This document shows positions 1 to 23,825 of a stretch of DNA of 56,153 nt, one piece after another. The stretch comes from Natronolimnohabitans innermongolicus JCM 12255. Lineage in GTDB: Archaea > Halobacteriota > Halobacteria > Halobacteriales > Natrialbaceae. The translations under genes were made by a program, and so were the position numbers. The notes under the pieces were generated by a model, which was not told the origin of the DNA, searched no databases, and was given only the letters and a program-made list of their open reading frames with translations. The first letter of the stretch is position 1; the number at the start of each line of letters is the position of its first letter. The stretch is from positions 37,387-93,539 of the forward strand of contig NZ_AOHZ01000035.1 of the NCBI RefSeq assembly GCF_000337215.1, in the 5' to 3' direction.

Positions 1-1722
1 TGCACCTTCGTGGTAGTCTCTGTAGGCCCGGTCACGGCCGATCGGTTGGTGATCAATCGATCCATCGCCAGCTAGTCGGACGTCGAAGGTGTTTCCGCCG
101 GAGGAGTACAGGCTGATCGCATCCTGTGGGCGGTCGCGATGGGCGTACATCACACCGCTATCGAGCGATCCTTCGAGGTCGCCCTTACGTCGGCCGTATT
201 CCACGGCACGTTCCAGTCGTTCCTCGCCTCCGAAATCCTCTGCATCATCGCGTGTGAGGGGTAGTTCCTGCGCGGCGCAGTTGAGTTGCTGGAGGTACAC
301 GGGATTGTTGTCGAGGTCAACGACGGCGCTCTCGTGATCTTCTTCGAGGACGTACTCCGGGTGCTGGAGAATGTACTGGTCGAGCGTGGAGTGGCTCGGG
401 ACGAACACAGAGAGCGCATCTCGCGTTCCTCTGCCCGATCGACCGATTCGTTGCCAGAACGACTGGCGCGACCCCGGATAGCCCATGAGGACAGTCCCAT
501 CGACGCCGCCGATATTGATACCGACTTCCAGGGCACTCGTCGTCGAGACGCCGTCGAGGTGTCCTTCCTTGAGTTGGTACTCCGTCCCCCGACGGGACTG
601 TTTGCCGTGTCCGGCATGGTAGGATGCGAGGTCCGGTCTTCCCTGATATCGGTTCTCCGGGTCGCTGATGAACCGCTTCGCACGGTTGACAGACAGTTCG
701 GTGAGCTTCCGCGAGTCACAGAACAGGAGCGACTGAACGTTCTTCTGGCACATATGCGCCCACACTTCTGGGGCTTCGACCGTCGCAGGACGCTTCGAAA
801 GCGCCGGAGAGTCAATGTCGTCAGTGAGACCGTCGTCACCACTCATCGGGGGGTCCCAGAACACGAGGTGACGGATGCCTCGCGGTGATCCGTCTTCGTC
901 GACGACTGCCGCGGGCTCACCAGTGAGTGCGAGAGCGTGTTCTGTGGGATTGCCGATCGTCGCCGTCGTGAGAACGTACTGCGGATCGCCGCCGTAGTAA
1001 TCGATGATCCGTTGGGCGCGTCGGAGGATCCAGGCGACGTGCATCCCGCCGAGGCCAGTCCACATGTGAGCTTCGTCGATAACCACTAGCGAGCAGTTCG
1101 AGTGGAAGTCTGCCCACAGGTGGTGACTCTCCAGATACTGATTCAGCCCGACGAAGTTCGTGATTACGACGTTGCACTCATCGCGGATGCGAGACTTTTC
1201 CTCGCTCTTCGTGTCACCGTCGTAGACGCCGACACTGATCTCCAGTCCAAGCGTGTTACGAAGGAACTCGTTGAGTTCTTGCTCCTGGTCGCGACTGAGC
1301 GCCTTCGTCGGATAGACGATAAGCGACCGCGTCTCCGGGTCCTCAAGGTATTGACGAGCGATGTGAAGACCGTAGACCAGCGTCTTCCCCGAGGATGTAC
1401 TGGTCGCTACACACACGTTGTCACCGCGGTCGAGTACCTGGAGAGCCTCTGCTTGGTGGCTCCACGGGTCGAATTCGAGGTTTCGAGCGATCTTGGGCGG
1501 AAGCACGTCCCCTGCTGGAACAGTCTCTTCCTCACGAGCGGGAATATCGAAGTTCTCGTGAACCTGCCCGAAGTAGCGGTTATTCGGGTAGGTACTCTCG
1601 AGCTCCTCGCCAGTGAGTTGGAGGATGTCCGTCTCGATATCGATGTCACCGTTGTTGGTGTTGTCCTCCGGGTTGGTCGTGAGGTCTGTCTGGCTGTGGT
1701 CGGTATCGTGGTCGTCGTGCAT
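1..1722 (-). CDS. MrfA/YprA-like DEAD/DEAH helicase, 3' end beyond the window
   Basis: This is an uninterrupted reading frame from ATG at 1722 down to base 1, so the C-terminus is missing. It reads as a superfamily 2 helicase of the COG1205 (YprA/MrfA) type. A disordered acidic N-terminus comes first, then Walker A ATSTSSGKT near residue 110, the DEAH box in VVIDEAHMW near residue 215, the TTATIGNP motif III, and RIGRSGRG as motif VI. The missing part would be expected to hold the DUF1998/four-Cys zinc domain seen in the second helicase at 3435-5912. The start lies 2 bp after the stop of the exonuclease gene, so the two form an operon. This pair matches bacterial mrfA-mrfB (helicase plus 3'-5' exonuclease) in family content and order is helicase-adjacent. 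The role here, repair or defence, is inferred. Confidence 0.88.
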   Translation of the reverse strand, partial: MHDDHDTDHSQTDLTTNPEDNTNNGDIDIETDILQLTGEELESTYPNNRYFGQVHENFDIPAREEETVPAGDVLPPKIARNLEFDPWSHQAEALQVLDRGDNVCVATSTSSGKTLVYGLHIARQYLEDPETRSLIVYPTKALSRDQEQELNEFLRNTLGLEISVGVYDGDTKSEEKSRIRDECNVVITNFVGLNQYLESHHLWADFHSNCSLVVIDEAHMWTGLGGMHVAWILRRAQRIIDYYGGDPQYVLTTATIGNPTEHALALTGEPAAVVDEDGSPRGIRHLVFWDPPMSGDDGLTDDIDSPALSKRPATVEAPEVWAHMCQKNVQSLLFCDSRKLTELSVNRAKRFISDPENRYQGRPDLASYHAGHGKQSRRGTEYQLKEGHLDGVSTTSALEVGINIGGVDGTVLMGYPGSRQSFWQRIGRSGRGTRDALSVFVPSHSTLDQYILQHPEYVLEEDHESAVVDLDNNPVYLQQLNCAAQELPLTRDDAEDFGGEERLERAVEYGRRKGDLEGSLDSGVMYAHRDRPQDAISLYSSGGNTFDVRLAGDGSIDHQPIGRDRAYRDYHEGA

Positions 1723-1724
1723 TG

Positions 1725-3182
1725 TTAGAAGTCCATGAGTCCGGTCTGTGTGGTGTTTTCATCAGCAGGAACGCTGGCACGCTTGTGGCCGGGCGTCGCC
1801 TCAGCAATCGATTCGTAGACTGCAGCCAGCTCACGGACGTCTGCCTCACAGTATGCCCGTGCAGTGTCCCAGTCTACGTCTCGAGCGCCCTCTGGAGATA
1901 CGAGAAGCCGCTGGATGGTCTTCGCCAGTGATTTCCCATCCACGGCGGCAGCAGCCGAGTCGCGCCCATGCCCGAGAGCCTCAGCGACGTCTTCAACCCG
2001 GTTCGTCCGACCGGGGAGGATGGCGTTGTCTTTTCGCACGGCCCAGTCGAACAGGTCGTACTCGAACACGGAGTCCGACCAGTAGTCTGCGTACTCCGGT
2101 GCGTGTCCTCGGATGAATCGGCTGAGGTGTTTGAAGTCGAAGTTGTGGCCGTTCCACGCGATGAGGGACGTGCGATCGTACTCGCTGGCTAGCCACGCAA
2201 CAAACTCTCGAGTGGCTTTCCCTGGGTTGTCTCGTGACGGTTCCGTATCGATGAAGTCCACGTACTCGTCTGTTTCAGGGTCGTAGACTCCGATGAGCCA
2301 GATGATACTCGGGTTGAGGCTGTCAGTCTCGATATCAATGAATAGCGGACTGTAGTCTGCTGCGGGGACAGCTTCGTCTGTGAGACGGATCACGCATCCT
2401 TCGGACAACGCGTGGGCGCTCTGGCGGATGCTCTGCGCTTTCGACTCACCGATACCTCGAACCTCACGAAGATCGCGTTCCGTCGCGGCTGCGACGTCGT
2501 CACGCGTCTCATACCCATTCCGAGAGAGCTTCGGGGCGGTTCCCTTGCCCACACCCGAGAGCGCTCGGAGGCCGAATTTATCCGCCGGTGTCGTGGACAA
2601 AGCGATGCGGCCACCAGAATCAAGCGAAAGGCAGGCGAGTTCGGGTGCCCCTTGCCGACGGGTTGGAGCAAGCCCGCGGACGGGAAGGCGAATGCTCTCG
2701 TCGTCGACGTCGGCCTTCCACACGAAATCGTAACTGGCCTCCATGGCTCCGGTGAGGAACGTCGCTTCTCGGTCGGTTCGGTGTTGGAAGCGAGCGAGGT
2801 GTTTGAGGCCATCGAGCGAGACATCTAAAGAGACCGAGTCGGCGCTCGTCTGTATCTCATCACAAATGACGTAGTCGACGTCGTTTGGAATCTCCTGCCC
2901 GCTGGCGGTAGAGGCTCCACCAATGAAGTCGAGCGATCTGACGATGGACACGGTAATCCCGTCAACAGTCTCAGTGTGAACCGCGCTCCCCCGAGTGTAA
3001 ATTACCGGACACGAGGCGGTACGCTCGACAGTGCTTACGATTCGCATATCCAACTTTTCTTCGACAATGTAGATGAGATCCGCATCGAAGTAATCGACGA
3101 GATCTTCGATGGCGGTCGTCGTAGCGTCTACTAGCGCATCACACCGGAGAGCAAGCAGACGTACTCCAAGGTCGCCCGCCAT
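1725..3182 (-). CDS. MrfB/YprB-like DEDDy exonuclease with helix-hairpin-helix
   Basis: The protein has 485 residues. An N-terminal half of unknown fold (about 1-195) is followed by helix-hairpin-helix motifs at about 205-255 (LSGVGKGTAPKL and VRGIGESKAQSI), which normally bind DNA backbone. An RNase H-fold exonuclease of the RNase_H_2 type follows: Exo I FIDIETDS near 277, Exo II AWNGHNFDF near 345, and Exo III YCEADVREL near 450 with the Y-x3-D signature. All four acidic residues are present, so it should be an active metal-dependent 3'-5' exonuclease. It is directly upstream of an MrfA-like helicase, which suggests a helicase-exonuclease pair. ATG 3182 is preceded in frame by TGA-GAA and a 22-codon leader reading frame, so the N-terminus may have been longer in an ancestor. 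Confidence 0.85.
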   Translation of the reverse strand: MAGDLGVRLLALRCDALVDATTTAIEDLVDYFDADLIYIVEEKLDMRIVSTVERTASCPVIYTRGSAVHTETVDGITVSIVRSLDFIGGASTASGQEIPNDVDYVICDEIQTSADSVSLDVSLDGLKHLARFQHRTDREATFLTGAMEASYDFVWKADVDDESIRLPVRGLAPTRRQGAPELACLSLDSGGRIALSTTPADKFGLRALSGVGKGTAPKLSRNGYETRDDVAAATERDLREVRGIGESKAQSIRQSAHALSEGCVIRLTDEAVPAADYSPLFIDIETDSLNPSIIWLIGVYDPETDEYVDFIDTEPSRDNPGKATREFVAWLASEYDRTSLIAWNGHNFDFKHLSRFIRGHAPEYADYWSDSVFEYDLFDWAVRKDNAILPGRTNRVEDVAEALGHGRDSAAAAVDGKSLAKTIQRLLVSPEGARDVDWDTARAYCEADVRELAAVYESIAEATPGHKRASVPADENTTQTGLMDF

Positions 3183-3185
3183 TTC

Positions 3186-3254
3186 TCAGTGGGTGGTTGT
3201 TCCCTGTCCCGGTTGGCTATCAGCAGGTTGTCCCTCGTTTCGCGTGTTGGTCAT
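3186..3254 (-). other. 22-codon leader ORF or truncated N-terminus
   Basis: ATG at 3254 opens a 22-codon frame rich in Thr, Gln, Gly and Pro that ends in TGA at 3188-3186. One codon (GAA) separates that stop from the ATG of the exonuclease gene, and all three lie in the same frame. A TATA-like box lies about 28 nt before ATG 3254, the normal spacing for a leaderless haloarchaeal transcript. Either this is the original N-terminus cut by a CGA-to-TGA change with restart at 3182, or it is a short regulatory leader peptide. The sequence alone does not decide. Confidence 0.4.
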
Positions 3255-3277
3255 ATACTCACTATCGTAACCCTCTG

Positions 3278-3286
3278 GCTTATACT
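3278..3286 (-). promoter_or_regulatory. TATA-like promoter for the exonuclease-helicase operon
   Basis: On the minus strand this reads AGTATAAGC and is centred about 28 nt before ATG 3254. It is the clearest TATA-like element in the 250-bp gap between the two helicase operons. The rest of the gap (about 3290-3434) shows no gene. Confidence 0.45.
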
Positions 3287-3434
3287 TTCTGACTAGCAAC
3301 TCTGCGATGTCCCTATCTTAGGAATTAGACGAATTCAAAAGTGGATCTACTGGGGTCCGTGGGAGCTACCAATTACTATGCTCTCACCGGCCAGTGGATC
3401 TATAGAGTACTGAAATGACTGAGTATAGTCTTCC

Positions 3435-5912
3435 CTATGGCTGAACAGGAACCTCTAACAGTTGCTTCAGAAGACGGATTGCGAGCCGCTTGTTTAGCGT
3501 CCGATTCGCATTCCCACATTGCGGCGAGTGAACGCACGATGGACACCCGTCTTCACAGGGACAGCTAGAGAGCATTTCCAACGTGCGCTCAAGCATTGTC
3601 TCCAGCTTACCGAACGCTTCTCGAGTAAGTCCTACTCCACCTGGATGACCATCGTGGACGAAAATCGTGCTCCATCCAGTGTGTGGATGATACTCGGTCG
3701 AGAGCCCACCGACGTCGCGACGAGCACAGAGAATCTCGAGTGGGAACAAAGAGATCAGTGCGTGCTCCAGAGCGTGAATACTCGCGAGAAATCCGTCCTC
3801 TTCCTCACTCGCAGCTTTGATGTCCTGCTCGATCTGCGGCGGAATTGTGAAATAGAGCCCACGGGTGCGAATTGTCCGTTCAGGAAGCGGCTCGTCGAAA
3901 GCCCGCTCGACGCCGTCCTCATCTGATGGGTGGTCATAGAGCATGTATCCCGTCACTTCTTCGGCGACGGTGAGATCCGCAAATCCAACAGAGACAGTCT
4001 CCTGTGAGGCGAGACCGCCCGTCTTGAACTCCTCTTCGATAGTAATTCGTTTCTCAGTGAGTGGACGGGTATACCCCATCGTGTTCACTGACTTCAGGAG
4101 CACACGGTCAGCATCGAATTCTGCCTCCGTCACACGATACGACTCTTTTTGATGATGATAGATTGCACCGGGGTGTGCATCACGAAGCGCATCGCCAAAC
4201 GGTAGTGAGGTAAGTGTCCTATCACGCAGTCGATCATAAAGTTCGATTTGCCGATCATCGATAGAGCGGATGTCCATCGTGTGTTGCGGGCTGTCCTCTC
4301 CCATATACTTCCACCGGGGACCGGTTCGAGAACTAAATCGCTCTAATTGGTCCGCGTCATCAAGAGACGCAACAGTCGCCGGATATTCAGCGCCGAAGTA
4401 GGTGTCGTCACTGGTGCGCAGGAACAGCTCTTGAGCCGCACAGCAGACGTGATCGTCTAGTATTTGGGTGTTTGCGGGGTTGACTGCTGCTTGTTCAGGG
4501 TCGCCGTCGAACAGGAGATCCGGATTCGCCATACAGTACTGGTCTAACGGATTCGGGCTTGCTACGAGGACAACGAGGCTCGGATTCTCTCCACGTCCTG
4601 CCCGCCCCGCGCGCTGGAATGTGCTCATGCTCGTTCCTGGATGTCCGTCGAGAAGGACGACGTCAAGACTGCCGACGTCGATGCCGAGCTCGAGTGCATT
4701 CGTACTCCAGACACCTCGAATGGATCCATCGCGAAGCCCCGCCTCGATGGTGGTCCGACGCTCGTCCTGGAGTGCTGAGTGGTATGCAGTAACCTGGTCC
4801 GCTAGCTCATGTTCACCACGCTTTCGAAGCTTGCTATCGCACCAGTTTGCGTACTGCTCGGTTCCCTGTCTGGCCCGTGTGAAGACGAGCGTCTGATACC
4901 CTCGTTGAACAAGGTCACAGAACAACCGCACTGTTTCTGGGTGATGGGAACGGCGCTCTCCGCCGATAATCTCGTTGTGGTGGGATACTTCAACCGGGCC
5001 CGACGGTGGTTGGCTTGGTTCAGAATCACCCTCTGCTGTCGAGTCCGGTCCGTCAACCGTCACGGATTCTGTCCCTACTTCCTCTTCCTCCCTTAGCGGT
5101 GGATTCCAGAATACCCAGTGACGAGGGCCCGTCGCGCTGGCATCGTCGTCGATAAGCGAGAACTGAGTAGGAGGTTGTCCAGTGACCGCTGCTGCGTGCT
5201 CGACAGGATTCCCGATGGTAGCAGAACAACAGATGTACTGTGGAGTGGAATCATAGTACTCTGCCAACCGCGAGAGGCGACGGAACACTAAGGAGATGTG
5301 GCTTCCGAAGATCCCCCGGAACTCGTGTACTTCGTCGACGACAATCGTTTCAAGTTGCTGGAATAGCCACTTCCAATGTTTCGGCGATTTAGAATATGGG
5401 AGCAAACTTTTGTGAATCATATCAGGAGTAGTTAAGAGGACATCTGGTTGACGTGCCCAAACTTCGCGTTTCTCGGAGTCTGTCAATAACCCTGTGTATG
5501 TCGCTACATCGACGTTCTGATCACCCCGAAGGTCTGCGGTGATTTTAGAAATAGTATCCTTTTGGTCATTAATCAGAGCGTTCATCGGGGCAATATAGAG
5601 CGTTTTGCCGTGGTGATTAAGAGCGCGTTCGAGTGCTGGCACCGTATAGGCGAGACTCTTACCGCTAGCCGTCGGAGTAGCTAGTACGACGTGGTCTCCG
5701 TCCCGAACAGCTTCGATTGCGTCTGCTTGGTGTTGGAACGGTTCGTTGATATCGTGACAAGAAAGTGCACTCGCCAACCGGTGGTCAAGTTCGAGAGGTG
5801 ATGTTTCGGCAGGGTCCCCTGGCGTTCGTTCTTGATGGACAATTTGGCCTTCGTAGTAGGGGCGATCTCTCAACCACTCGATTGTCTTCTCTACGAATAA
5901 TTTTCGAGTCAT
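3435..5912 (-). CDS. MrfA/YprA-like DEAD/DEAH helicase with C-terminal zinc domain
   Basis: This complete 825-residue SF2 helicase belongs to the COG1205 family. Walker A ATPTASGKS lies near residue 80, DEVH in VVDEVHEFRG near 188, CCSATIGNP motif III near 235, and QRAGRAGRG motif VI near 440. The C-terminal domain ends with FVHDGHPGGVGL and the cysteine cluster CPCEDGCPSCVHSPQCGN (about 780-800), the zinc-binding signature of the MrfA DUF1998 region. Members of this family unwind DNA 3'-5' and are known in mitomycin-damage repair (MrfA). A DUF1998 helicase is also a core DISARM component. It starts 31 bp after the phospholipase-D/ATPase gene, so the two are probably co-transcribed. It is a diverged paralogue of the helicase at 1-1722. 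Confidence 0.93.
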   Translation of the reverse strand: MTRKLFVEKTIEWLRDRPYYEGQIVHQERTPGDPAETSPLELDHRLASALSCHDINEPFQHQADAIEAVRDGDHVVLATPTASGKSLAYTVPALERALNHHGKTLYIAPMNALINDQKDTISKITADLRGDQNVDVATYTGLLTDSEKREVWARQPDVLLTTPDMIHKSLLPYSKSPKHWKWLFQQLETIVVDEVHEFRGIFGSHISLVFRRLSRLAEYYDSTPQYICCSATIGNPVEHAAAVTGQPPTQFSLIDDDASATGPRHWVFWNPPLREEEEVGTESVTVDGPDSTAEGDSEPSQPPSGPVEVSHHNEIIGGERRSHHPETVRLFCDLVQRGYQTLVFTRARQGTEQYANWCDSKLRKRGEHELADQVTAYHSALQDERRTTIEAGLRDGSIRGVWSTNALELGIDVGSLDVVLLDGHPGTSMSTFQRAGRAGRGENPSLVVLVASPNPLDQYCMANPDLLFDGDPEQAAVNPANTQILDDHVCCAAQELFLRTSDDTYFGAEYPATVASLDDADQLERFSSRTGPRWKYMGEDSPQHTMDIRSIDDRQIELYDRLRDRTLTSLPFGDALRDAHPGAIYHHQKESYRVTEAEFDADRVLLKSVNTMGYTRPLTEKRITIEEEFKTGGLASQETVSVGFADLTVAEEVTGYMLYDHPSDEDGVERAFDEPLPERTIRTRGLYFTIPPQIEQDIKAASEEEDGFLASIHALEHALISLFPLEILCARRDVGGLSTEYHPHTGWSTIFVHDGHPGGVGLTREAFGKLETMLERTLEMLSSCPCEDGCPSCVHSPQCGNANRTLNKRLAIRLLKQLLEVPVQP

Positions 5913-5943
5913 GTGTGCGTGTGTTGTGATTATCTACTCCTAG

Positions 5944-8091
5944 CTACCGTGTCAGAAGGTTACGAGCGCGTGAGAGGTATCCTTCTCGTGGATCTTCTGT
6001 AGTTGTCTCACCAAGCCAGTCGAAGAACTCGTCCGGCGTTTTGATAATCAAATCGAGTCCTCGCTTTTCAATTCGAACTGTCATAGGAGGGTCGCGTTTG
6101 TACTCGTGGAGTTCGAAGTTCATCGATTCCGGGAAGGTCACCTGTAGCGTGTCACTGTCTTTAGCGATTTCGACGTCCTCTCGGTCGATGAGGTTTCGCC
6201 AGCGCTCTCTGCCAGTGTCATATGCTTGCTCAGCAGGTTCGGTGGGGAAGTAGTCCGGCAGCGGCCGATCGGCGTACTCATAGAGGTCCTGCATGGCCGC
6301 CCTCACTTCCCGAAGTGCGTCAGAGTCCGTTCCAAGTACGAGATCGCGGTTGAGGTACTCGTACCCAAACCACTGGAAAATCGGGTTCTCCGTGTCGATT
6401 AGACGGTTTACTTCAGCTTCACCCTGATGTGAGGTCATGAAATTCACATCGAATCGGAGGATCTTAGCACGGTTACGGAACCACTCTCCAGGGCGCTTAT
6501 CGTTCGAGATGAAGGCAAACATCGGATAGGCCGTTTCGCCGGTCCATCCACTCCAATAGTTTCGAAGGGTATCCAGCGAGTTCACCTTCTGCTTGGTGAT
6601 GTCGTCGACGACGACGGGGAACGACGTGTGTGCTGAACGCAAATTCCGTACTTTTCGCTTCCCAATTTCGTCTGCGTCGACGGGTGCTTCGACACGGTTT
6701 CCACTGATCAGCGACAGGGCAAATCGACAGAATGTCCCTTTTCCTCCGTTTGACTCGCCAAAGACGTAGAGGTACGGGAGAGCCTTGTCGAGGTTAATCC
6801 CGTGCTCACGGTAGAACGCGGCCTGTCGATTGGCGAACGGCGCCCAGAAGAACCAGAGTAGTGCTTCGTACATGTGGGCTTTGACCGCTGTTGGGTTGTT
6901 GGAATTCCCATAGTTGTCCACCGTCGCAAAGTAGTCCTCAATCTCGGCCAGCGCTTCGTCGACACGCTCTGGATTAGATGGGGGCTGCGTGACACGATAG
7001 ACCGTGCCGTCATAGTGGAACTTGAGTTCGTCCTTGGACTCGTTCAGGTGCATTGTCGGGACATCGAACACCTGTTGCGCATACCGCTGGAACGCATCTG
7101 GGGTCGTCGTCAAGGTATCATTCGACACGGTCGCATCGAAGTCAGTCATCTGCGACAATGTGTCAACTGTCGACTCTTCGTACCCGCGTAGAGACAAGGT
7201 GATACGGTCCTGTGGCGCATCTTCTAAGTCTGGATCCTTCTCGCTAGATTCGCCTTCTGAATCGAGCTCTGCCTCCTCTGATTCCTGTTCTGCGGCGGTA
7301 TCTGTACCTCCATCGAGTGCGAGATCCACTGTTTCAACTTCTGCATCGATATGGTCCGCCAGACGACCGTGAACCTCTCCCAGTTCGTCTTGTGTACCCA
7401 CACGTCCTTCGGTGTACAGTTTGATTACCTCTTCTCGGTCATCGTCCGAGAGTTCGAGTTGTTCGGAGAGATCTTCCAGGAAGGGTCCGCCACTGTTGTA
7501 TGAGTCTCGGTGATCGCGATAGAGTTCCTCGAATTCCCCGTAGAGCTTACTGTCCGTCATCGTATCATAGACGACGCCTACATTGGTCTGATTCGACCAT
7601 GCATTTCGCGAGAGATTCGGAGAGCCAACGATGACTTTTGCTGGTGTACCGTCATCGGTGTCCTCGAGTTCGGATTCACCCGTAGCCTTTCCGCCGAGGG
7701 TCATCTGATCTTTATCACCGTCCTCATCCTCTCCTTCTAAGACAGAGCCGTCGTACTCGATGAGATACAGCTTGGAGTGGACCTCCTTGTTCTCACAGAG
7801 GTAGATTACGAGCTTGCCTTCACTCCTGAGTTGTTCAAGCCGATCTGCGAGATCCGGCTTGTCGATGAGGCGCTCTCGGTAGTCGGAGACGTCCCCAACG
7901 ACCACCTCCAGGGACTCCAAGTCGTCGAGGTCTTCGAAGAGATCCAGAATAAACTCGGGGGAGTCACAATAGGTGACGACACGCATTCGTTTTGCGCCAT
8001 CGAATACGTCGGAGAATGACCGCCAGCTCTTGAAAATCTCGACGTGGCTGTGATCACTGCTTCTAGTATCGAGGGGAACGTCGAACTTCAT
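5944..8091 (-). CDS. Phospholipase-D-like nuclease fused to a P-loop ATPase
   Basis: The protein has 715 residues. The N-terminal third is a single PLD-like module: VHSKLYLIE (H-x-K-x4-E; the usual Asp is Glu) near 105-113 and GSPNLSRNAWSNQTNVG near 155-172, as in PLDc_2 nucleases. An acidic, probably disordered linker spans about 225-300. The C-terminal part has Walker A GESNGGKGT near 445 and Walker B FPVVVDDI near 493, followed by FISNDKRP. That arrangement resembles phage/plasmid SF3 or AAA-like ATPases. PLD proteins next to DUF1998 helicases occur in DISARM (DrmC with DrmA/DrmB), but a PLD-ATPase fusion is not the standard DISARM part. It probably cuts or binds DNA in an ATP-dependent way. 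It opens the operon with the downstream helicase. Confidence 0.82.
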   Translation of the reverse strand: MKFDVPLDTRSSDHSHVEIFKSWRSFSDVFDGAKRMRVVTYCDSPEFILDLFEDLDDLESLEVVVGDVSDYRERLIDKPDLADRLEQLRSEGKLVIYLCENKEVHSKLYLIEYDGSVLEGEDEDGDKDQMTLGGKATGESELEDTDDGTPAKVIVGSPNLSRNAWSNQTNVGVVYDTMTDSKLYGEFEELYRDHRDSYNSGGPFLEDLSEQLELSDDDREEVIKLYTEGRVGTQDELGEVHGRLADHIDAEVETVDLALDGGTDTAAEQESEEAELDSEGESSEKDPDLEDAPQDRITLSLRGYEESTVDTLSQMTDFDATVSNDTLTTTPDAFQRYAQQVFDVPTMHLNESKDELKFHYDGTVYRVTQPPSNPERVDEALAEIEDYFATVDNYGNSNNPTAVKAHMYEALLWFFWAPFANRQAAFYREHGINLDKALPYLYVFGESNGGKGTFCRFALSLISGNRVEAPVDADEIGKRKVRNLRSAHTSFPVVVDDITKQKVNSLDTLRNYWSGWTGETAYPMFAFISNDKRPGEWFRNRAKILRFDVNFMTSHQGEAEVNRLIDTENPIFQWFGYEYLNRDLVLGTDSDALREVRAAMQDLYEYADRPLPDYFPTEPAEQAYDTGRERWRNLIDREDVEIAKDSDTLQVTFPESMNFELHEYKRDPPMTVRIEKRGLDLIIKTPDEFFDWLGETTTEDPREGYLSRARNLLTR

Positions 8092-8366
8092 TGGATGCGG
8101 AATTGGGATTTTGTCATTTAGGCGTAATCTTGTTACTGTTCATTAGGACCACTTTCCGGACGATGATCGGAGCATTCGATCCACCCCCGCTGTGACCTCG
8201 GCTCTATCGTCGAATGAATGCCGATTTGTGTGGTCATATCTATCTTCTTTGAGGCCACCAATGCTCTGTCATGAAATAAACTTTCCGACTAGGGACATTA
8301 GGAAAACAGTATTGTGAAGATAAGGGCACCAAAAAGTAGTTATATATCTAGTCCGCTTGAGCTACT
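8092..8366. promoter_or_regulatory. Divergent promoter region with TATATAT box for the rightward gene
   Basis: This 275-bp AT-rich gap separates the leftward PLD-ATPase gene from the rightward exonuclease-like gene. TTATATAT at about 8340-8347 lies 20-27 nt before ATG 8367, fitting a leaderless transcript. On the other strand a weak CCTAAATG lies roughly 25-33 nt before ATG 8091. No other gene is visible. Confidence 0.5.
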
Positions 8367-9494
8367 ATGGCGCCAGACACCTTGACCGCGAATAATCTCG
8401 TTGCAGCGGAGCGAGATGGCGAGTACGGTCTTACAGTTCAATTACGGGTAGACAAGGTCGAACGAACCCCAGACCACGACTGGTGGGCGCAGCTTGTACA
8501 CTGTTCAGATGTGCTGGGGACGCACGTGAAGCTCACAGTTTTCGACGATGATGACTGCGATCTCGTTGACTACTCCTTTGAAGAAGGAACCTGGTATGAA
8601 TTCGACGACGTCAACCCTGATGTGTACCAGGGAACCATCGGTATCAAAGCAAAGTGGGATCGGCAGGTCCGCCAGCTCTCTGGTCGCCCAGAGATGTCGC
8701 CTTCGGACACGACTGGCATTGTTCGTCGACTTGGTGCAGTCGATGCTATTGCAGCACTCGACATCGAGACGATAACGACTGTTTCCGAGCGAGAACTCGA
8801 ACCACCGAATCCAGACCATCAAGAACTACTCTGTACCGGCGTTGGATACCGAGGTAGTCCGAGCGAGGAGATTGAGGCTGAGATCCTCTTCCGTGAAGAC
8901 GAGACGGCTTCTGCGGAACTCGATGCTATTGAGGCGGTTGTGAACTGGCTCGATGCGAGGGATGTCGATGTTCTCATCACCTTCGGGGGCGCCTGGTTCG
9001 ACCTCCCAGTCTTGGTGGGTCGTGCGGAACGGGCAGCTGCGGAAATCGGTGAGCCTGGACGAGCAGAGAATGTACGTACAGCACTCGAGTCCTACTACCA
9101 TGCCGACCTCTCGTCGGCAAAGAATCGGGTGCTGGGGGAAGGTTCACTTGAGGATATGGCTGAACATGTTGGATCGCCCGCACCGAAGACGCTCTGGACG
9201 GATTACGAAATTGGCCTTGAACCGCAGACGTGGCGCGAGAGTCAGTGGGAGATCATGCGAGAGGAAGACCGCGATCCCCCGTCTGACGATCTTGGGGATC
9301 CCACCGTATTCAATAGCGACGTTCCATACTTCGGTGAGGCGTGGCTAACGGCTAGCGCAGCAGGAGAGGACAACCGAGCCTTGAACCTGTACGCGTGTCT
9401 CGAAACCTATACGCTCGCAGACATCCATCCCTTGTTCGCTATAGCTGACGATGAGCGGTCGACCGGTCAACCGTCGTTCCCGATGACCTACTAG
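8367..9494 (+). CDS. OB-like domain plus RNase-H-fold (DnaQ/PolB-type) exonuclease homologue
   Basis: The 375-residue protein starts leaderless at ATG 8367. Residues about 1-105 look like a beta-rich nucleic-acid-binding (OB-like) domain. The rest resembles the 3'-5' exonuclease domain of family B polymerases: Exo I LDIETI near 130 and an Exo II-like segment TFGGAWFDLPVL near 210, where the usual Asn is Gly. The last motif, YACLETYTLADI near 350, has Glu where Y-x3-D is expected. One catalytic residue may therefore be changed, and activity is uncertain. It is the only rightward gene in the first 16 kb. Its stop codon shares a CTAG palindrome with the stop of the convergent AddA-like gene, so the two genes overlap by four bases. 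A companion role to the surrounding helicases is inferred from position only. Confidence 0.75.
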   Translation: MAPDTLTANNLVAAERDGEYGLTVQLRVDKVERTPDHDWWAQLVHCSDVLGTHVKLTVFDDDDCDLVDYSFEEGTWYEFDDVNPDVYQGTIGIKAKWDRQVRQLSGRPEMSPSDTTGIVRRLGAVDAIAALDIETITTVSERELEPPNPDHQELLCTGVGYRGSPSEEIEAEILFREDETASAELDAIEAVVNWLDARDVDVLITFGGAWFDLPVLVGRAERAAAEIGEPGRAENVRTALESYYHADLSSAKNRVLGEGSLEDMAEHVGSPAPKTLWTDYEIGLEPQTWRESQWEIMREEDRDPPSDDLGDPTVFNSDVPYFGEAWLTASAAGEDNRALNLYACLETYTLADIHPLFAIADDERSTGQPSFPMTY

Positions 9495-12400: not shown

Positions 12401-12928
12401 TGCGGGCGAAATCCCACTTCGTTTCATCGACCCGATAAACGAGAGGAGTTTCGATGCGACGCCGCTCCCGTATGAATCTGGGCCGTAGACGTTGGGTTTG
12501 ACGGCACGGTATTCGATCTCGTCGAGGACATCGAGGACGATGACGTACTTTTCAGCATCCGTTGCGATCTCGAAGTCTGGATCTAATCCCGCGTCATAGG
12601 CATAGTCCGTCAGTATCTCGTTGCAGATAGAGTGGTATGTGTACGCGTCGACGTCGTAACCTGCTGGTCCGAGTTTTGCGTTGAGTTTCTCACGCATCGA
12701 ATCAGCGGCGTTGTTGGTGAAGGTCAACGCGAGAATCCGATCCGGAGAGACCCCGTGTTCATCGATGAGATTCTCGATTTTCCGGACCATCGTGAACGTC
12801 TTTCCAGTACCCGCACCCGCGAGTACTCGCATAGGATACCGCTCCGACTCGATTATCGTCCGCTGCTGTGGCTTCGGATCCTCATCGTCTTCGATGGTTG
12901 GGAGCCAGTCAGGCACGTCGTCGCTCAT
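9491..12928 (-). CDS. UvrD/AddA-like helicase with C-terminal PD-(D/E)XK Fe-S nuclease
   Basis: The protein has 1145 residues from ATG 12928, chosen because it gives an ATGA overlap with the upstream gene. SF1A helicase motifs are intact: VLAGAGTGKT near 37-44, FCDEFQDTD near 362, VVGDDDQAIYEWRGA near 392, and MTIHKSKGLDFPVV in the C-terminal half. The last 250 residues form a RecB-type nuclease: GFIDAVYR near 1022, VVIDYKA near 1040 and QLPLYLLA after it. Cys in YEECPRQ near 915 and HCRWCQHSSLPC near 1125 can coordinate a 4Fe-4S cluster, as in AddB and Cas4. The layout is that of AddA, the ATP-driven helicase-nuclease subunit for double-strand-break end processing. It is the last gene of the three-gene operon. 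Confidence 0.92.
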   Translation of the reverse strand: MSDDVPDWLPTIEDDEDPKPQQRTIIESERYPMRVLAGAGTGKTFTMVRKIENLIDEHGVSPDRILALTFTNNAADSMREKLNAKLGPAGYDVDAYTYHSICNEILTDYAYDAGLDPDFEIATDAEKYVIVLDVLDEIEYRAVKPNVYGPDSYGSGVASKLLSFIGSMKRSGISPAEIEEYLGSPEQVYELDAVPNRIEEIAGDHLGGRSVSTVLDGISDTRADLVAERDTLRDEGLEASIKDFLNRLVDLCDALEVAFEEHEAGERSLPEDAHKLPKYLLGGYSSGAPGGIPNDLKLELTDYLRNALDECKTALDLNAGYEAYERELDRRNLLDFDGLVVKTVELLQTDVGKGLGDRWDYVFCDEFQDTDRLQFGLITSLVSEDRLFVVGDDDQAIYEWRGANVANITDELDDVFGPDLEDEPLEQNFRSRQPILDLANEALERLADRRSTKTLTRVHEPDFDGDTVAVVEEADDEGDRAEQLVTVTRNLLSGDAEALDRAYDPGEIALLVRNNDHATPILEGFDEAGIPYQVAGDLSTESIGVGTVVAYLKALARPEEDDVSWNRVLTMRYRLTDADLRRVNSHDDGAYAGICNQPLEVFDEPNRIQEVREHISRLLKLRETASLSHLYRELKRLTNIDWYLSEQERRDLAQLDEIIDQYGNDAVQPPLTPQFIDSLQHYDSLLEESGSAPTSQPELADDAVNVMTIHKSKGLDFPVVLMPRLIADEWEPGSRTYDTFESALSEGPESVFDKDLVAQDANEARRILHVGITRAEEILVLHGSREEDDTDDERPVHDAVESILPESVPWRPSNGHLPIWRDLQECLPSNHADWTASLASTVVGDVSGQVTYGSEKLSASDGRDRVITFGNKLIEGSIEREPENRRFSIDALTGPMTPNPALQHSYTSLEAYEECPRQHFLDYVVNGFSDYRENGYGGDGISQRIVGLLFHDTAEIAAKEQAAERAEWYAICERLAGQRRATDELPVAKECIDQYFDLDLSGWEIVDAEREFQLEVDGHELVGFIDAVYRTPDGELVVIDYKATERHRDIDENKQLPLYLLACRDLYEEPITRAGYAYVGDIGPKVEARSFDEGELDSVRAAVSTTMDRIKETSFSGYETGEHCRWCQHSSLPCGEEWRQEDGGR

Positions 12929-13833
12929 CGCTGCACCCCCTCCGTGAGAGATTCTACGCACATCTCTCGGAACGTGCAGTCGGGACAGGCCTCATCGTGA
13001 ATGAGTGGGAATGGATCTGGGTCGTGAGAACCGCTCGTAATCCCTTCGTGTGCACGTCGCAGGAGATTCCATATCGTGTCATGATACTCTTCGTAGATGT
13101 CCGTCGTATCGCGTGGATAGCCCCGTACAGAGATTTCGTATCCGTCTGGTGTGCTTTCGAACGACGTCCGATTCAGGAGACCGTAGAAACTGAATCGAAC
13201 ATTCATCCCATCCTCGTAGAGGTCAGACTGTTTGACGCCCTCGATGTATGTGGCCGCCTGAAATGCGTTCCTGACTCTCTTCGGGTCATGATCCGTTCCG
13301 TTTAGGTGGTCCTCGAGGACGCTCGCAGTATACGACGTGATCACGTCATTGAGGTTCCGCTTGTAATCGATGACATGGAGACCTTCGTCAGTACGGAGGA
13401 TGTTGTCGGCTCTCCCGCGCAGTCCGAGCCCGTTCTCAACGCATTCGAGCCACTTCTCCGTCGCGATCGATTGACGAGCGTGATCAATGCCGTGGCCACC
13501 ATCCGGGTCAAAAAAGGTCTTGATAGCCTCTAGATTTTCAAGGCGCTGGTATTCCTGGTGGGCGCTGGACGCGTACTCATCCGGGTCGATATGCTCTCTC
13601 CATTGCTCTGGGAATGCCTCTACTGCCCGATCGTAGATGAGCTGGGCGTCATCTTCTGGACTAGTTGCTTCACAGACAACCTCGATTGTTCCGTGATAGG
13701 CACGCCCCTGATTCAGGTACAACCGTGTCTTCTCTGGGGTGTTGACCTTCTGTATGTACTCATAATCGAACTTCCGCTGGCAGTCCGCGTAGGTCGCAAG
13801 ACGCGACGGCGAAAGGAAGGTAACGTCAGTCAC
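12925..13833 (-). CDS. Cas4/RecB-like PD-(D/E)XK nuclease with Fe-S Cys motif
   Basis: This predicted nuclease has 302 residues from GTG 13833. That start overlaps the upstream stop by 8 nt and leaves the family-like opening FLSPSRLATYADCQRKF. A longer frame to ATG 13911 exists but runs 86 bp into the upstream gene. PD-(D/E)XK residues are visible in LRGRADNIL and HVIDYKRN (about 155-175). The first Cys (near 18) and the late CPDCTFREMC (near 285-294) form the four-Cys set of AddB/Cas4 nucleases. Since the upstream AddB-like protein ends without a nuclease domain, this gene probably supplies it in trans as a split AddB. Stop and start of the next gene overlap as ATGA. Confidence 0.88.
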   Translation of the reverse strand: MTDVTFLSPSRLATYADCQRKFDYEYIQKVNTPEKTRLYLNQGRAYHGTIEVVCEATSPEDDAQLIYDRAVEAFPEQWREHIDPDEYASSAHQEYQRLENLEAIKTFFDPDGGHGIDHARQSIATEKWLECVENGLGLRGRADNILRTDEGLHVIDYKRNLNDVITSYTASVLEDHLNGTDHDPKRVRNAFQAATYIEGVKQSDLYEDGMNVRFSFYGLLNRTSFESTPDGYEISVRGYPRDTTDIYEEYHDTIWNLLRRAHEGITSGSHDPDPFPLIHDEACPDCTFREMCVESLTEGVQR

Positions 13834-15898
13834 GACGAATCCCTCCGGCAGCGAACTCGATACGTGCTTGCAGCGCATCCCGAAGCTGCTCACCACGGGT
13901 TCCGCTTTCACTGAGGAGGTGCTGAATCTCCGAAAGTTCAGTTTCGACCTCGTCGAGAGAGACCGTCACATCCTGGCTGTGAGAGCGACGGACGTCTGCA
14001 AGGGCGTTGTCGATCCGAGAGAGCAGGTATTCTTCCGCTCTTCGCTCGCTCCTGATCTCTGGTTCTGTCGCCTCTTTCACCCACGGCAACTGCCGATAAG
14101 CGTCCGTGAGAAACCGCGACGGCTGAGCACGCTCTTCCAGTGCGGTGTCTTTGTGATTGTATAGACAGAAGTACAGGCGGTCGCCAGCAGCGGTTGCTCC
14201 GATGGCGAGCCGCCGCCGCGCGTGCTCTGCATGGTATCGTCGGAACGAGCGGCTTGACGCTGTCGAGGACGTCGGGAAGGTGTTGGTGACATCTTCCGCC
14301 TCGACCTGTGTTACGCCCGGATAGTCCGGCATCTCTGAGAGGCGTTCTTGGGAGAACAACCGAGTCAGGGAAGGTGATCCAGGGTACTCTTCGTCGACGA
14401 TGTCCAGCAAAAAGACTGCTCGGAAGGTTCCGTTTTTAATCGCCTGTAAGTGATCGACTCGGACACCTCCGTCAAGTTCGGTCGAACTTGTTTGGTTCTG
14501 TTGAGGGGCATACTCGTGAGCCCGTTCAAGCATCGAGGCGAACGACTTCCAGGTCGTTTCGATGAACGACGTGTCTTCTACGAACTCCGCCATAGCGAAC
14601 GCCCGCCGAACGTTCCCGAATTGGGCACGAACGTTCAGTGGGGACGTCTCCTCAGCAATTCGAACCTTCATGTTTGACTCAGTTGCCCACCGTCGGAGCG
14701 GACTCGAGAGGCCCTCCATCTGCTCGATAGAGGCCAGAATCGATTCGTCTAAGACCGAGGCTTCCAGCAGCTCTATTCGAATATCGTCATCATCGGCTGC
14801 CAGATAGCGAACGACTTGTAGTAGCTCTCGAATAGCGGGGTCATCGCCGAACCCCGTGACAGTCGAGGACTCTGTCGGAACCCCTGTCTGCTGGAAGGCA
14901 CGAAGCGTCTCGATTACTGCGGAACCGCTCTGTTTCAGTACGACGGCGAAATCCTCGTACTCCCAGTTCTCTCGATCTCTAAGCCGCTCGATTTCATCGG
15001 CGACTTTCTTGATCTGTTCGTCGGGGGTTTCTGTCGGAATAACGTTCACCTCCCCCGCCTCGGGATCTTCGTGAACGGTTTCATTCGCTAGGTACGCACC
15101 CGTCGCATCCGGACGAGATGGGGGCGCTGTCCTTGCAGTAGACTCTGTCCTCGAAAATGAGACGTAGTCAGTAATTGGCCCCGGCTCGATCCATGTACGC
15201 CGAACACTTGCGTTCTCTTCTGCTACACATACGAGTTCCAGCCCATTTGCTAAGGTAGCGAGATAGCGACGGTCAAGCGGTAAGAATTCCTCAAACTCGA
15301 CGGTGAGGATTGCCTCGACATCCACTACGTCGTCTCGTTTCTCGGTCTCCGACAGCGCCGCATTCGCCTCAGTGATTAGCTGGCCGCGTTCCAGGTGGTC
15401 ATGTTCGCTGAGCCATTTGTGGAACGCTTCCACGAGTTCTGCAACTTCGACTAGCTCTGGTGTCTTCTCAAAGGAAACATCCTGCCACGTGATAGTTTCC
15501 ATGAGCTGGGCGATATCACTCAGGAAGGAGGGTTGTTCGGCTGCACGCTGGAAATGCTCGCTGTCCCACTCTTGATCTTCGAGGAACCGATGGACGAGTT
15601 CGCGACGAATCGCGTCGGAGAGGATCGCCCGGTCATCGGTCTGGTTTACGACGTCGGTCGCTTGAACGACTAAAGACGTTACTCGCGGGACTGCTGCACC
15701 GGGTGTTGTATCTTCGAGTTCGTCCCGAAACGTATCCATGCTAGTTGGCGACCCGGTGATGACGAGGATGTCCTCTGGGCCGTATTCGTTGAGCAACGAC
15801 TCATACTGTTCAATTACCGTGGATATGAGATCTCCAGTGCCAAATGGAACGGTAATCAAAGTCCCCTCAAAGTACTGTACCTCAGACACGCTTGACAC
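13826..15898 (-). CDS. AddB/RecC-like inactivated helicase subunit
   Basis: The protein has 690 residues, with GTG 15898 as the longest start (another in-frame GTG is at 15889). It resembles AddB and other UvrD-fold proteins that lost ATPase motifs. The N-terminal position of Walker A reads VPFGTGDLIST without GK[ST]. The C-terminal half has FRAVFLLDIVDEEYPG, typical of the AddB/UvrD C-terminal fold, then an Arg-rich RRRLAIGATAAGDRLYF segment like the UvrD motif around VALTRA. It ends before any nuclease domain, which the next gene provides. First gene of the AddB-nuclease-AddA-like operon. A non-catalytic, DNA-scanning role as in AddB is inferred. No strong TATA box was found in the 230 bp upstream. 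Confidence 0.8.
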   Translation of the reverse strand: MSSVSEVQYFEGTLITVPFGTGDLISTVIEQYESLLNEYGPEDILVITGSPTSMDTFRDELEDTTPGAAVPRVTSLVVQATDVVNQTDDRAILSDAIRRELVHRFLEDQEWDSEHFQRAAEQPSFLSDIAQLMETITWQDVSFEKTPELVEVAELVEAFHKWLSEHDHLERGQLITEANAALSETEKRDDVVDVEAILTVEFEEFLPLDRRYLATLANGLELVCVAEENASVRRTWIEPGPITDYVSFSRTESTARTAPPSRPDATGAYLANETVHEDPEAGEVNVIPTETPDEQIKKVADEIERLRDRENWEYEDFAVVLKQSGSAVIETLRAFQQTGVPTESSTVTGFGDDPAIRELLQVVRYLAADDDDIRIELLEASVLDESILASIEQMEGLSSPLRRWATESNMKVRIAEETSPLNVRAQFGNVRRAFAMAEFVEDTSFIETTWKSFASMLERAHEYAPQQNQTSSTELDGGVRVDHLQAIKNGTFRAVFLLDIVDEEYPGSPSLTRLFSQERLSEMPDYPGVTQVEAEDVTNTFPTSSTASSRSFRRYHAEHARRRLAIGATAAGDRLYFCLYNHKDTALEERAQPSRFLTDAYRQLPWVKEATEPEIRSERRAEEYLLSRIDNALADVRRSHSQDVTVSLDEVETELSEIQHLLSESGTRGEQLRDALQARIEFAAGGIRRD

Positions 15899-22724: not shown

Positions 22725-23825
22725 ATGACACGAGATCACGATGCAGCTGGCCGTCGAATCATGGATGAGCTGGGTGAAGAGAGTCGCATACCGATTCTGA
22801 ACATCGAGGAGGGAGACGTCTATGTACTCCTTGGCTTCCCGATCGCTGGCCTCCTCTTTGGTGGGCTCACGGGACTCGATGGTGCGATCTTACCGTTCGT
22901 CTTACTCGGTGTCGTCCTTGGTGGGTCGATCGTCTACGCGTCACCCAACCACCTCCCGGCGTCGACGTGGCTGGGAGACGTCTACCGTCACTACTGCAAG
23001 CGGCCTCGGTTTACGTACAGCACGGAGGCCACAGCAGAGTCCACTGAAGCGAGTACCGAGGGCGGACTCGTGAGCTATACGCCGTTCAAACCGGACGAGC
23101 GAACACAGGACCTCACGAACATCAGGCGAGCGTGGCCTGGTGCCGGTGCAATCGAGCGCTCAGATGGCGCGATGGAAGCCTACCTCGAGATCGATCCCGG
23201 GAACATGGACTTCGCGATGTCCGGTGACTGGGCACAGATTCAGCAACTCGGCGAGGAGTTCGCGAATAAGGAACTCGACTTCACGCTCAAATTCCACGCC
23301 ACGACGCGGTCGTTCCCAGTCGAGAAGCTGATCGAGCGAATCGATGGGCGGCTCACTGACAGCGACGTCAAGCAAAACCCGATCTTCAAAGAGTTACTCG
23401 AGGAGTATCGAGAGCAACGTCCGCGAGATCTCGAGGGGACCCAACAGGTACGGTATTTCATCGGCGTCGAAGTCGACCCCTTCGAGGTCTACGATCGGTA
23501 CCAGGACGAACAATCTCCTGCAGAGAAGCTCACCTCGTTTCCGGTGGTCGGCTTCCTGTTCAATCCGTTCGTGACCCGTCGCAGCGACATGACCGACGCG
23601 GAGATCCGGGCGGCCATGTTCGAGAAACTCGAGAACCGCTGCCACGGTCTCCAGACGGAATTCATCCAGAAGGCATCAGGATGGTCCGCTCATCGGCTTA
23701 CGACGGTCGAACTATTCGTCCTTTCACTGGACTTCTGGAACGGCGAGGAACACGAATACGACGATGGAGCGGATGCAATTCGTGATCATCCGACTATTGA
23801 TCATCAACGGAGGGTCGATCAGTGA
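22725..23825 (+). CDS. VirB3-like membrane protein
   Basis: The protein has 366 residues. Two adjacent hydrophobic segments near 30-47 and 52-68 sit close to the N-terminus (VLLGFPIAGLLFGGL and LPFVLLGVVLGGSIVYAS), as in VirB3/TrbD. The rest is a soluble, acidic domain that resembles the N-terminal part of VirB4-type proteins. It starts one base after the previous stop and ends with a GTGA overlap with the VirB4 gene, so the two are translationally coupled. VirB3 and VirB4 commonly act together or are fused. Confidence 0.6.
   Translation: MTRDHDAAGRRIMDELGEESRIPILNIEEGDVYVLLGFPIAGLLFGGLTGLDGAILPFVLLGVVLGGSIVYASPNHLPASTWLGDVYRHYCKRPRFTYSTEATAESTEASTEGGLVSYTPFKPDERTQDLTNIRRAWPGAGAIERSDGAMEAYLEIDPGNMDFAMSGDWAQIQQLGEEFANKELDFTLKFHATTRSFPVEKLIERIDGRLTDSDVKQNPIFKELLEEYREQRPRDLEGTQQVRYFIGVEVDPFEVYDRYQDEQSPAEKLTSFPVVGFLFNPFVTRRSDMTDAEIRAAMFEKLENRCHGLQTEFIQKASGWSAHRLTTVELFVLSLDFWNGEEHEYDDGADAIRDHPTIDHQRRVDQ

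What the first reader, a model, noticed from the sequence alone, without database searches (positions are those of the whole stretch)
1..15898. Helicase-nuclease island: a candidate undescribed multi-gene system
In 16 kb stand two MrfA-like helicases, an MrfB-like exonuclease, a PLD-ATPase fusion, an OB/RNase-H-fold protein and a split AddAB-like complex. Only one gene (8367-9494) faces the other way. Each family is known separately (MrfAB repair, AddAB end processing, DUF1998 helicase plus PLD in DISARM), but I know of no named system with this whole set. No methylase of DISARM type and no dnd/ssp genes are present. The position beside conjugation and restriction genes suggests defence.
Basis: partly seen in the sequence, partly recalled or inferred. 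Interest (0 to 1): 0.75.

Follow-up and report, generated by a model that had tools for sequence, protein, structure and literature searches.

The report
Argonaute-less AgaP nuclease defence island
A plasmid-borne gene island in salt-loving archaea carries a nuclease that normally works beside an Argonaute, but here no Argonaute is found and an exonuclease sharing the Argonaute's DNA-binding domain stands next to it instead, together with DNA-end-processing enzymes.

Summary
The key is the PLD-ATPase (P0003): 81-82% identical to AgaP of Natrinema pellirubrum, the PLD nuclease published as partner of a haloarchaeal Argonaute (APAP system); its C-terminal half models as an SF3 helicase. The window's genome shows no Argonaute match. 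The divergent gene P0004 fuses an OB domain, homologous to the N-terminal OB domain of these Argonautes, to a B-family-polymerase-type 3'-5' exonuclease. The cassette DUF4143 ATPase / AddB-nuclease-AddA / P0004 / AgaP recurs in nine sequences of at least seven genera; their AgaPs form one clade nested among Argonaute-partnered AgaPs, so one Argonaute-to-exonuclease swap is likely. Across 391 genomes of the class AgaP, Argonaute and this AddB type co-occur, and Ago/AgaP loci often carry AddAB or Mre11-Rad50-NurA-HerA. So it is an Ago-less variant of a known system with its own end-processing enzymes. Defence by this variant and replacement of Argonaute by P0004 are inferred. Against strict replacement: Ago and OB-exonuclease coexist in three other loci; half the AgaP loci examined lack such machines; AddAB and MrfAB also occur alone.

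The parts
5944..8091 (-). AgaP homologue: N-terminal PLD nuclease (H105, K107 ... G156, S157, N159) and C-terminal SF3-type helicase/ATPase (Walker A 445-453, VVVDD 493-497, SND 529-531, RNRAK 539-543)
   Evidence: 82% / 81.4% identical to the N. pellirubrum protein; key residues invariant or nearly so in an alignment of 27, positions; model resembles Nuc 1byr and SF3 helicases 5dgk, 1svl, 7ola
8367..9494 (+). OB-exonuclease (P0004): Ago-type N-terminal OB domain fused to a B-family-polymerase-type DEDDy 3'-5' exonuclease
   Evidence: hhalign of residues 11-113 with residues 2-102 of Ago: prob 98.7, E 4e-16; D132, E134, D212 nearly invariant and Y348, D352 invariant in 14 sequences; model 125-373 aligns with PolB exonucleases, best Z 16.6, 2.4 A, 176 residues
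9491..12961 (-). AddA-like: UvrD-type helicase (AGAGTGKT) with C-terminal PD-(D/E)XK nuclease
   Evidence: Pfam UvrD-helicase 1.2e-60, PDDEXK_1 1.1e-26; motifs
12925..13911 (-). stand-alone PD-(D/E)XK nuclease, the split-off nuclease part of AddB; Cys positions resemble Fe-S nucleases (that resemblance is recalled)
   Evidence: PDDEXK_1 6e-21; motif and Cys positions; the nuclease is at the C-terminus of a 1159-residue protein in the same place in L092:2870-6349
13826..15898 (-). AddB-like helicase-fold scaffold without Walker A
   Evidence: UvrD_C 7.7e-05, below its cut-off; no GK[ST] motif; followed by the nuclease and AddA in the 13 loci where it was seen beside AgaP as a separate gene
3435..5912 (-). 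MrfA/YprA-like helicase 2 with MZB domain
1725..3182 (-). MrfB-like exonuclease (HhH plus RNase_H_2)
1..1722 (-). MrfA/YprA-like helicase 1, N-terminal 574 residues; the gene runs on left of the window to about -935
   Evidence: assembly join just left of the window
16132..17838 (+). AAA ATPase with DUF4143, boundary gene of the cassette
   Evidence: Pfam; relatives within 15 kb of 20 of 55 AgaP and 15 of 43 Ago ORFs in the fetched loci
8092..8366 (.). 275-base intergenic region between the divergent AgaP and OB-exonuclease genes; possible shared control region
   Evidence: sequence read; no promoter test made

Best explanation
The island is an Argonaute-less branch of the haloarchaeal Argonaute-AgaP (APAP-type) anti-plasmid/anti-virus islands. 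AgaP, a PLD nuclease joined to an SF3 helicase, is the effector. The place of Argonaute is taken by an OB-exonuclease (P0004) that carries the type of OB domain seen at the N-terminus of these Argonautes. Proposed working: AddB/nuclease/AddA, MrfAB and SbcCD open and resect ends or stalled structures of invading multi-copy DNA; P0004 binds the single strands through its OB domain, trims 3' ends and holds AgaP in check or hands it to the target; AgaP assembles on the opened DNA and cuts it. Shown here: homologies, intact catalytic motifs, conserved gene sets, co-occurrence, purifying selection, nesting of the Ago-less clade. Inferred: defence by this variant, every physical interaction, restraint of AgaP by P0004, order of steps.
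For: AgaP identity to the protein of the characterised N. pellirubrum locus, whose AgaP is toxic alone and restrained by its Ago (PMC11442185). No Ago match in the window's genome; of the 6 cassette genomes, G000, G046, G182 and G019 have no match, G113 has OB-only matches, and G100 has an Ago on another contig. The aligned part between P0004 and Ago is the OB domain. In the AgaP tree the 9 OB-exonuclease-partnered rows form one clade (100/99), sister to 4 Ago-partnered rows (one, G317, with an incomplete Ago ORF), with N. pellirubrum outside both (95/93), all in one clade (100/99) (rooting within it by the other AgaPs). Genome-level co-occurrence in 391 genomes: AgaP x Ago OR 13.4, p 8e-16; AgaP x AddB (58% identity or more) OR 9.1, p 3e-11; AgaP x OB-exonuclease OR 7.0, p 1e-4 (not corrected for phylogeny). 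22 of 45 AgaP rows, the window's included, have at least two genes of AddAB, Mre11-Rad50-NurA-HerA or SbcCD within 15 kb, while NurA of one of the two types is in 1 of 43 AgaP-negative genomes (no same-method search of AgaP-positive genomes was made). An MrfB-MrfA-SbcD-SbcC block 92-98% identical to cassette members lies beside another Ago in G065. dN/dS 0.05-0.24.
Against: 23 of 45 AgaP rows show no such machine within 15 kb or the stretch fetched. 63 of 97 AgaP loci have no Ago within 40 kb, and as only 11 of 18 OB-exonuclease loci lie within 40 kb of any AgaP or Ago, at least 52 of those 63 have neither, so AgaP can exist without both. Ago and OB-exonuclease coexist in G127, G151 and G003, so they are not strict alternatives. 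24 of 47 AddB loci and 7 of 18 OB-exonuclease loci lie more than 40 kb from any AgaP or Ago; Ago x OB-exonuclease co-occurrence is not significant (p 0.08). Host RPA-like proteins carry a related OB domain, and the OB tree does not resolve Ago from OB-exonuclease. P0004 is divergent from AgaP, not in its operon. The swap is one event, without replication.
Confidence: 0.6

Rival explanations
1. A DNA-repair or plasmid-maintenance island: AddAB, MrfAB and SbcCD repair or recombine the plasmid, and AgaP/P0004 serve replication-end processing rather than defence.
For: MrfAB acts in repair, and the MrfB-linked YprA branch is called repair-related (PMC12458937); MrfB-like matches are found in 375 of 391 genomes, many of them weak; AddAB modules occur free-standing.
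Against: The related AgaP is needed for plasmid restriction and strengthens virus immunity in the published work, and is toxic alone (PMC11442185); the window holds restriction genes to the right (McrBC, GmrSD, type I), and a DNA methyltransferase lies beside the cassette in three other plasmids; NurA of this type is rare in AgaP-negative genomes.
Confidence: 0.2
2. Several independent defence modules (AgaP/P0004, AddAB, MrfAB, SbcCD) stacked in one plasmid hot spot and not working together.
For: AddAB and MrfAB occur alone; gene-by-gene dS against the same relative varies widely (G182: AddB 0.02, AgaP 0.22, MrfB 1.20), so blocks recombine independently; an E1/JAB block is inserted in 6 of 9 cassettes.
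Against: The same kinds of module recur around Ago/AgaP in distant clades, and P0004 carries an OB domain of the Ago type.
Confidence: 0.25
3. A decayed APAP locus: Ago was lost and the rest is drifting.
For: No Ago; some relatives look broken (AgaP cut short in G176, Ago cut short in G318, Ago in pieces with a stop in G290).
Against: Open reading frames and catalytic motifs, dN/dS 0.05-0.24 for the eight genes tested, same order in nine sequences.
Confidence: 0.05

Closest known systems
APAP system (long-A pAgo + AgaP PLD protein), Natrinema pellirubrum pNATPE02, PMC11442185
   Same: AgaP 81-82% identical over the full length; HxK at 105 and GSxN at 156 here, 105 and 157 in the N. pellirubrum protein, the latter being the paper's numbers; DUF4143 ATPase gene nearby in both
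   Different: no Argonaute; an OB-exonuclease instead; AddAB, MrfAB and SbcCD present. The N. pellirubrum locus holds a 95-residue ORF matching only the OB part of P0004 beside its Ago
MrfAB (YprAB)
   Same: MrfA-like helicases with MZB/WHD_HRQ1 and an MrfB-like exonuclease next to each other
   Different: two helicases flank one exonuclease, inside a larger cassette
AddAB helicase-nuclease
   Same: UvrD helicase-nuclease plus a Walker-less partner and PD-(D/E)XK nuclease
   Different: AddB is split into two genes; modules of this type are within 20 kb of AgaP or Ago in 22 of 47 loci
BRIGADE / DISARM (YprA-family defence)
   Same: YprA-family helicases with a PLD nuclease
   Different: no 7-deazaguanine/Dpd genes or DrmB seen in what was scanned; the helicases stand beside an MrfB, as in the branch that PMC12458937 calls repair-related

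Membership tests
APAP | AgaP: PLD with HxK and GSxN about 50 residues apart | tested here: met
   HxK at 105 and GSPN at 156; 81.4% identity to the N. pellirubrum protein
APAP | catalytically active long-A Argonaute gene adjacent to agaP | tested here: not met
   no Ago match in G000; the neighbour of AgaP is P0004
APAP | plasmid or virus restriction; AgaP toxicity suppressed by partner | not testable with these tools
   needs expression in a haloarchaeon
MrfAB | MrfA (SF2 helicase with MZB) next to MrfB (RNase_H_2 exonuclease) | tested here: met
AddAB | AddA helicase-nuclease plus AddB with nuclease domain | tested here: met
   domains found, AddB split in two genes; NCBIfam AddA models matched, but below their cut-offs
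DISARM | drmA and drmB with drmC PLD and a methylase | tested here: not met
   among the nine window proteins scanned there is no methylase or separate DrmB; DrmA profiles match a part of the helicases only
BRIGADE | two YprA helicases with Dpd-like 7-deazaguanine genes | tested here: inconclusive
   two YprA-type helicases and a PLD are present; no 7-deazaguanine genes seen, but not every flanking gene was scanned
Dnd/Ssp phosphorothioate systems | dnd or ssp genes | tested here: inconclusive
   no such full match among the nine window proteins scanned; other flanking genes not all scanned; a Rad50-like protein of the relative G141 matches part of DndD
Hachiman, Druantia, BREX and Gabija helicases (PADLOC hits) | full-length match and partner genes | tested here: not met
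   matches are confined to helicase regions; no partner such as GajA or DruA-D among the nine proteins scanned

The most novel reading that the evidence does not exclude
Evolution replaced an Argonaute by a guide-free exonuclease that carries the Argonaute's type of ssDNA-binding OB domain, so the same PLD-helicase effector is now aimed by DNA structure (free or resected ends of multi-copy DNA) instead of by guides; and haloarchaeal Ago/AgaP islands often carry their own end-resection machine (AddAB, SbcCD or Mre11-Rad50-NurA-HerA), a candidate source of guides or single strands.
Probability: 0.4. Interest if true: 0.9.

Novelty: new variant of a known kind. Interest (0 to 1): 0.78.

Why it matters
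How Argonautes obtain guides, and how Ago-linked effectors are held in check and aimed, are open questions. Natural sister loci, some with Argonaute and some with an OB-exonuclease beside AgaPs 82-86% identical (78% in G317, whose Ago ORF is incomplete), let both be tested by swapping partners. The recurrent link with AddAB or Mre11-Rad50-NurA-HerA offers a genetic entry to guide making or target processing; work on CbAgo in E. coli already ties Argonaute interference to RecBCD (PMC10164581, passages seen). In the listings of the nine paper searches made I saw no paper that, by title or abstract start, reports this Ago-less form or this link; the library holds open-licence papers only.

Tried and rejected
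Tried: PADLOC and NCBIfam naming of the window proteins; P0003, P0004 and P0008 have no NCBIfam match, and PADLOC gave shared helicase, ATPase and nuclease domains. DISARM and BRIGADE were considered and set aside because partner genes were not seen. Phages: no match for AgaP in 50,697 records at E 1e-3. Profile search of AgaP against solved structures: none at E 0.1. Is the contig a closed circle: no terminal overlap found. OB-domain tree of Ago, OB-exonuclease and host RPA-like proteins: the RPA rows form one clade (100/100), Ago and OB-exonuclease interleave without resolution; one row (L146) was left out because its first part is not a plausible OB. MrfB as a specific marker was rejected: matches in 375 of 391 genomes. 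Decay of the locus was rejected on dN/dS and open frames. Strict alternation of Ago and OB-exonuclease was rejected because G127, G151 and G003 hold both.

Limits of the samples. The 45 AgaP rows are the window's own plus 44 hits: the strongest ones and a spread of weaker ones, not a random sample (G254 counts twice); one more fetched place (G314) gave no clustered AgaP ORF and was dropped; single-stretch loci reach only about 10 kb to each side. The 43 Ago ORFs come from fetched loci, some fetched because a partner was near. Of the 52 Ago loci, 11 were judged by coordinates alone, and G386 and G323 were fetched later. The 55 AgaP ORFs include 10 fetched or 48 with knowledge of a neighbour. 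The 44 loci overlap with these genomes. One search uses hits typed from the listings, which are cut at the weak end; the 52 Ago hits are those over 140 bits.
Full report
What is there. The window is G000:C35:37387-93539 of a 4.6-Mb draft genome. On the - strand, in transcription order: AddB-like scaffold, PD-(D/E)XK nuclease, AddA-like helicase-nuclease, then (after the divergent + gene P0004) a PLD-ATPase, MrfA-like helicase, MrfB-like exonuclease, second MrfA-like helicase, and beyond the window SbcD and SbcC. SbcD has GDxH, GDxxD, GNHD and GHxH motifs; SbcC has Walker A, LSxG and LLLDE motifs but no CxxC. A DUF4143 ATPase (16132-17838, +) closes the other end.

The effector. A class-wide search found matches of the PLD-ATPase in 95 of 391 genomes. 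A plasmid search named the best copies: Natronosalvus amylolyticus, Natrarchaeobaculum sulfurireducens, Haloprofundus halobius, Haloarcula litorea, Natribaculum longum and Haloplanus sp. GX21 at 94-98%, Salinirubellus salinus at 86%, and Natrinema pellirubrum pNATPE02 at 81%. The last lies in the ago-agaP locus of that strain, the subject of PMC11442185 (abstract, first of three parts of Results, and Discussion read): its coordinates equal those of G091, where a Piwi protein precedes it, and its HxK at 105 and GSPN at 157 are the paper's numbers. In that work a plasmid with agaP alone gave very few transformants, ago suppressed this, and H105, K107 and the remote GSxN were needed. P0003 has H105, K107 and GSPN at 156-159. 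The C-terminal half is an addition of this analysis: Walker A, Walker B, an SND motif and an arginine motif are conserved, and the model resembles SF3 helicases. The terms ATPase, HerA, Rad50 and NurA have no occurrence in the paper's main text.

The missing Argonaute and its neighbour. A class-wide search with a haloarchaeal Ago gave matches in 104 of 391 genomes, 52 of them over 140 bits (the weaker rows are largely OB-only or short), and none in the window's genome. P0004 residues 11-113 align with the N-terminal OB domain of Ago (hhalign prob 98.7, E 4e-16). Residues 118-374 model as a B-family-polymerase DEDDy exonuclease (best 5mdn, Z 16.6, rmsd 2.4 A, 176 residues) with the catalytic residues conserved. 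Host RPA-like proteins have a related OB too; they form a clade of their own (100/100) while Ago and OB-exonuclease interleave unresolved. A tree of 46 AgaPs puts the nine OB-exonuclease-partnered proteins in one clade (100/99), sister to four Ago-partnered ones, with N. pellirubrum outside (95/93). N. pellirubrum holds a 95-residue ORF matching only the OB part of P0004, next to its Ago. The simplest history is one swap of Ago for an OB-exonuclease.

The wider pattern. The same module kinds recur near Ago and AgaP in other clades: Ago-AgaP-AddB-nuclease-AddA (G010, G053, G254; G318 with a cut Ago), AgaP-Mre11-Rad50-NurA-HerA (G141, G135, G334, and G223; a small extra gene stands before HerA), Mre11-Rad50-NurA-HerA-AgaP (G242, G083, G011); MrfA-MrfB-Ago with Mre11-Rad50-NurA-HerA and AgaP (G151, G224, G374) and OB-exonuclease-MrfA-MrfB-Ago-AddAB-AgaP over about 40 kb (G127). 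Ago loci without AgaP also carry AddA with a fused AddB (G159, G100, G074, G355) or HerA-NurA-Rad50 (G279, G269). In fetched loci, 27 of 43 Ago ORFs and 31 of 55 AgaP ORFs have at least two genes of AddAB, Mre11-Rad50-NurA-HerA or SbcCD within 15 kb (not a random sample). Of the 16 Ago ORFs without, five showed none of the labelled genes at all within the stretch fetched (G179, G361, G283, G180, G052; G052 has the Mre11 set about 22 kb away; G283 and G180 lie on contigs under 8 kb). In the less selected set of 45 AgaP rows it is 22 with and 23 without. In 44 GTDB loci with 8-kb flanks, 13 have two or more Mre11-Rad50-NurA-HerA genes (overlapping genomes). NurA of one of the two types occurs in 1 of 43 AgaP-negative genomes.

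Statistics. On 391 genomes: AgaP x Ago 38 shared, OR 13.4, p 8e-16; AgaP x AddB (58% or more) 31 shared, OR 9.1, p 3e-11; Ago x AddB 21 shared, OR 8.5, p 5e-9; AgaP x OB-exonuclease 12 shared, OR 7.0, p 1e-4; Ago x OB-exonuclease 5 shared, OR 2.7, p 0.08 (not significant). Relatedness is not corrected for. 31 of 52 Ago loci have AgaP within 20 kb; 22 of 47 AddB loci are within 20 kb of AgaP or Ago and 24 are beyond 40 kb; 9 of 18 OB-exonuclease loci are within 20 kb and 7 beyond 40 kb; 63 of 97 AgaP loci have no Ago within 40 kb.

Conservation of the cassette. Seven genera are named; the window's own is not known. The MrfA/MrfB/MrfA block follows in them (in G019 it is split by the contig end: MrfB lies at C4:70362). 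An E1-JAB block stands between AgaP and MrfA in 6 of 9 and is absent from the window, N. amylolyticus and N. sulfurireducens. dN/dS of eight genes against five relatives is 0.05-0.24 in 39 of 40 possible comparisons (MrfB of G019 was outside the stretch), with dS so uneven between genes that blocks have probably recombined.

Mechanism. Best reading: end-processing enzymes expose single strands of invading multi-copy DNA, P0004 binds and trims them and controls AgaP, AgaP cuts. Support from outside: AgaP needs its partner to be tolerated (PMC11442185), and CbAgo interference works with RecBCD (PMC10164581, passages only). Every contact is inferred. YprA-family systems were compared with PMC12458937 (abstract, passages and one section read). 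PMC6299218, PMC4158269, PMC2743648 and PMC6114923 were seen as passages only.

Verdict. It is filed as an Ago-less variant that probably works like APAP but is not a member, since the defining Argonaute was tested for and not found.

Noticed in passing
just left of window position 1 (G000:C35:37386): A single N with an 89-base duplicated flank joins two assembly pieces inside the first MrfA gene, adding about 30 residues to it.
   Followed up: yes
L044:1311-3893: A block of two small genes and a ThiF/E1-JAB protein is inserted between AgaP and MrfA in 6 of 9 cassettes: a ubiquitin-like conjugation set beside a nuclease effector.
   Followed up: partly
window:34942-38876, 41179-43152, 45321-51238: McrBC, a GmrSD-type protein and type I restriction-modification genes follow on the same contig; a TraG-like and a HerA-domain-like (below cut-off) conjugation-type ATPase lie at 23822-30047.
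   Followed up: partly
L004:4835-9757: A 1640-residue protein with no Pfam match at E 1e-4, left of the island.
   Followed up: no
L153, L154, L155, L158: Argonautes without AgaP next to AddA and a fused AddB-nuclease of about 1100 residues.
   Followed up: partly
L130:5069-19001: In G065 a different Argonaute (PADLOC PprPIWI, E 7e-128; no Pfam match) stands beside an MrfB-MrfA-SbcD-SbcC block 92-98% identical to cassette members.
   Followed up: yes
L119-L122, L126, L129 (AddAB without AgaP): Free-standing AddB-nuclease-AddA modules in haloarchaea are often followed by a gene of about 454-463 residues.
   Followed up: no
L163: An AgaP relative (40%) in a contig binned as Bacteroidetes MAG QS_3_64_15, with none of the labelled genes nearby; mis-binning not excluded.
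   Followed up: no
L139:10978-13071: A PLD-family protein with an AgaP-like C-terminal half on an Arcobacter plasmid, near ParAB.
   Followed up: no
L047:18207-18905: A YdjM-like membrane protein gene lies between ago and agaP in G306 (Salinirubellus), G344 and, shorter, G240.
   Followed up: no
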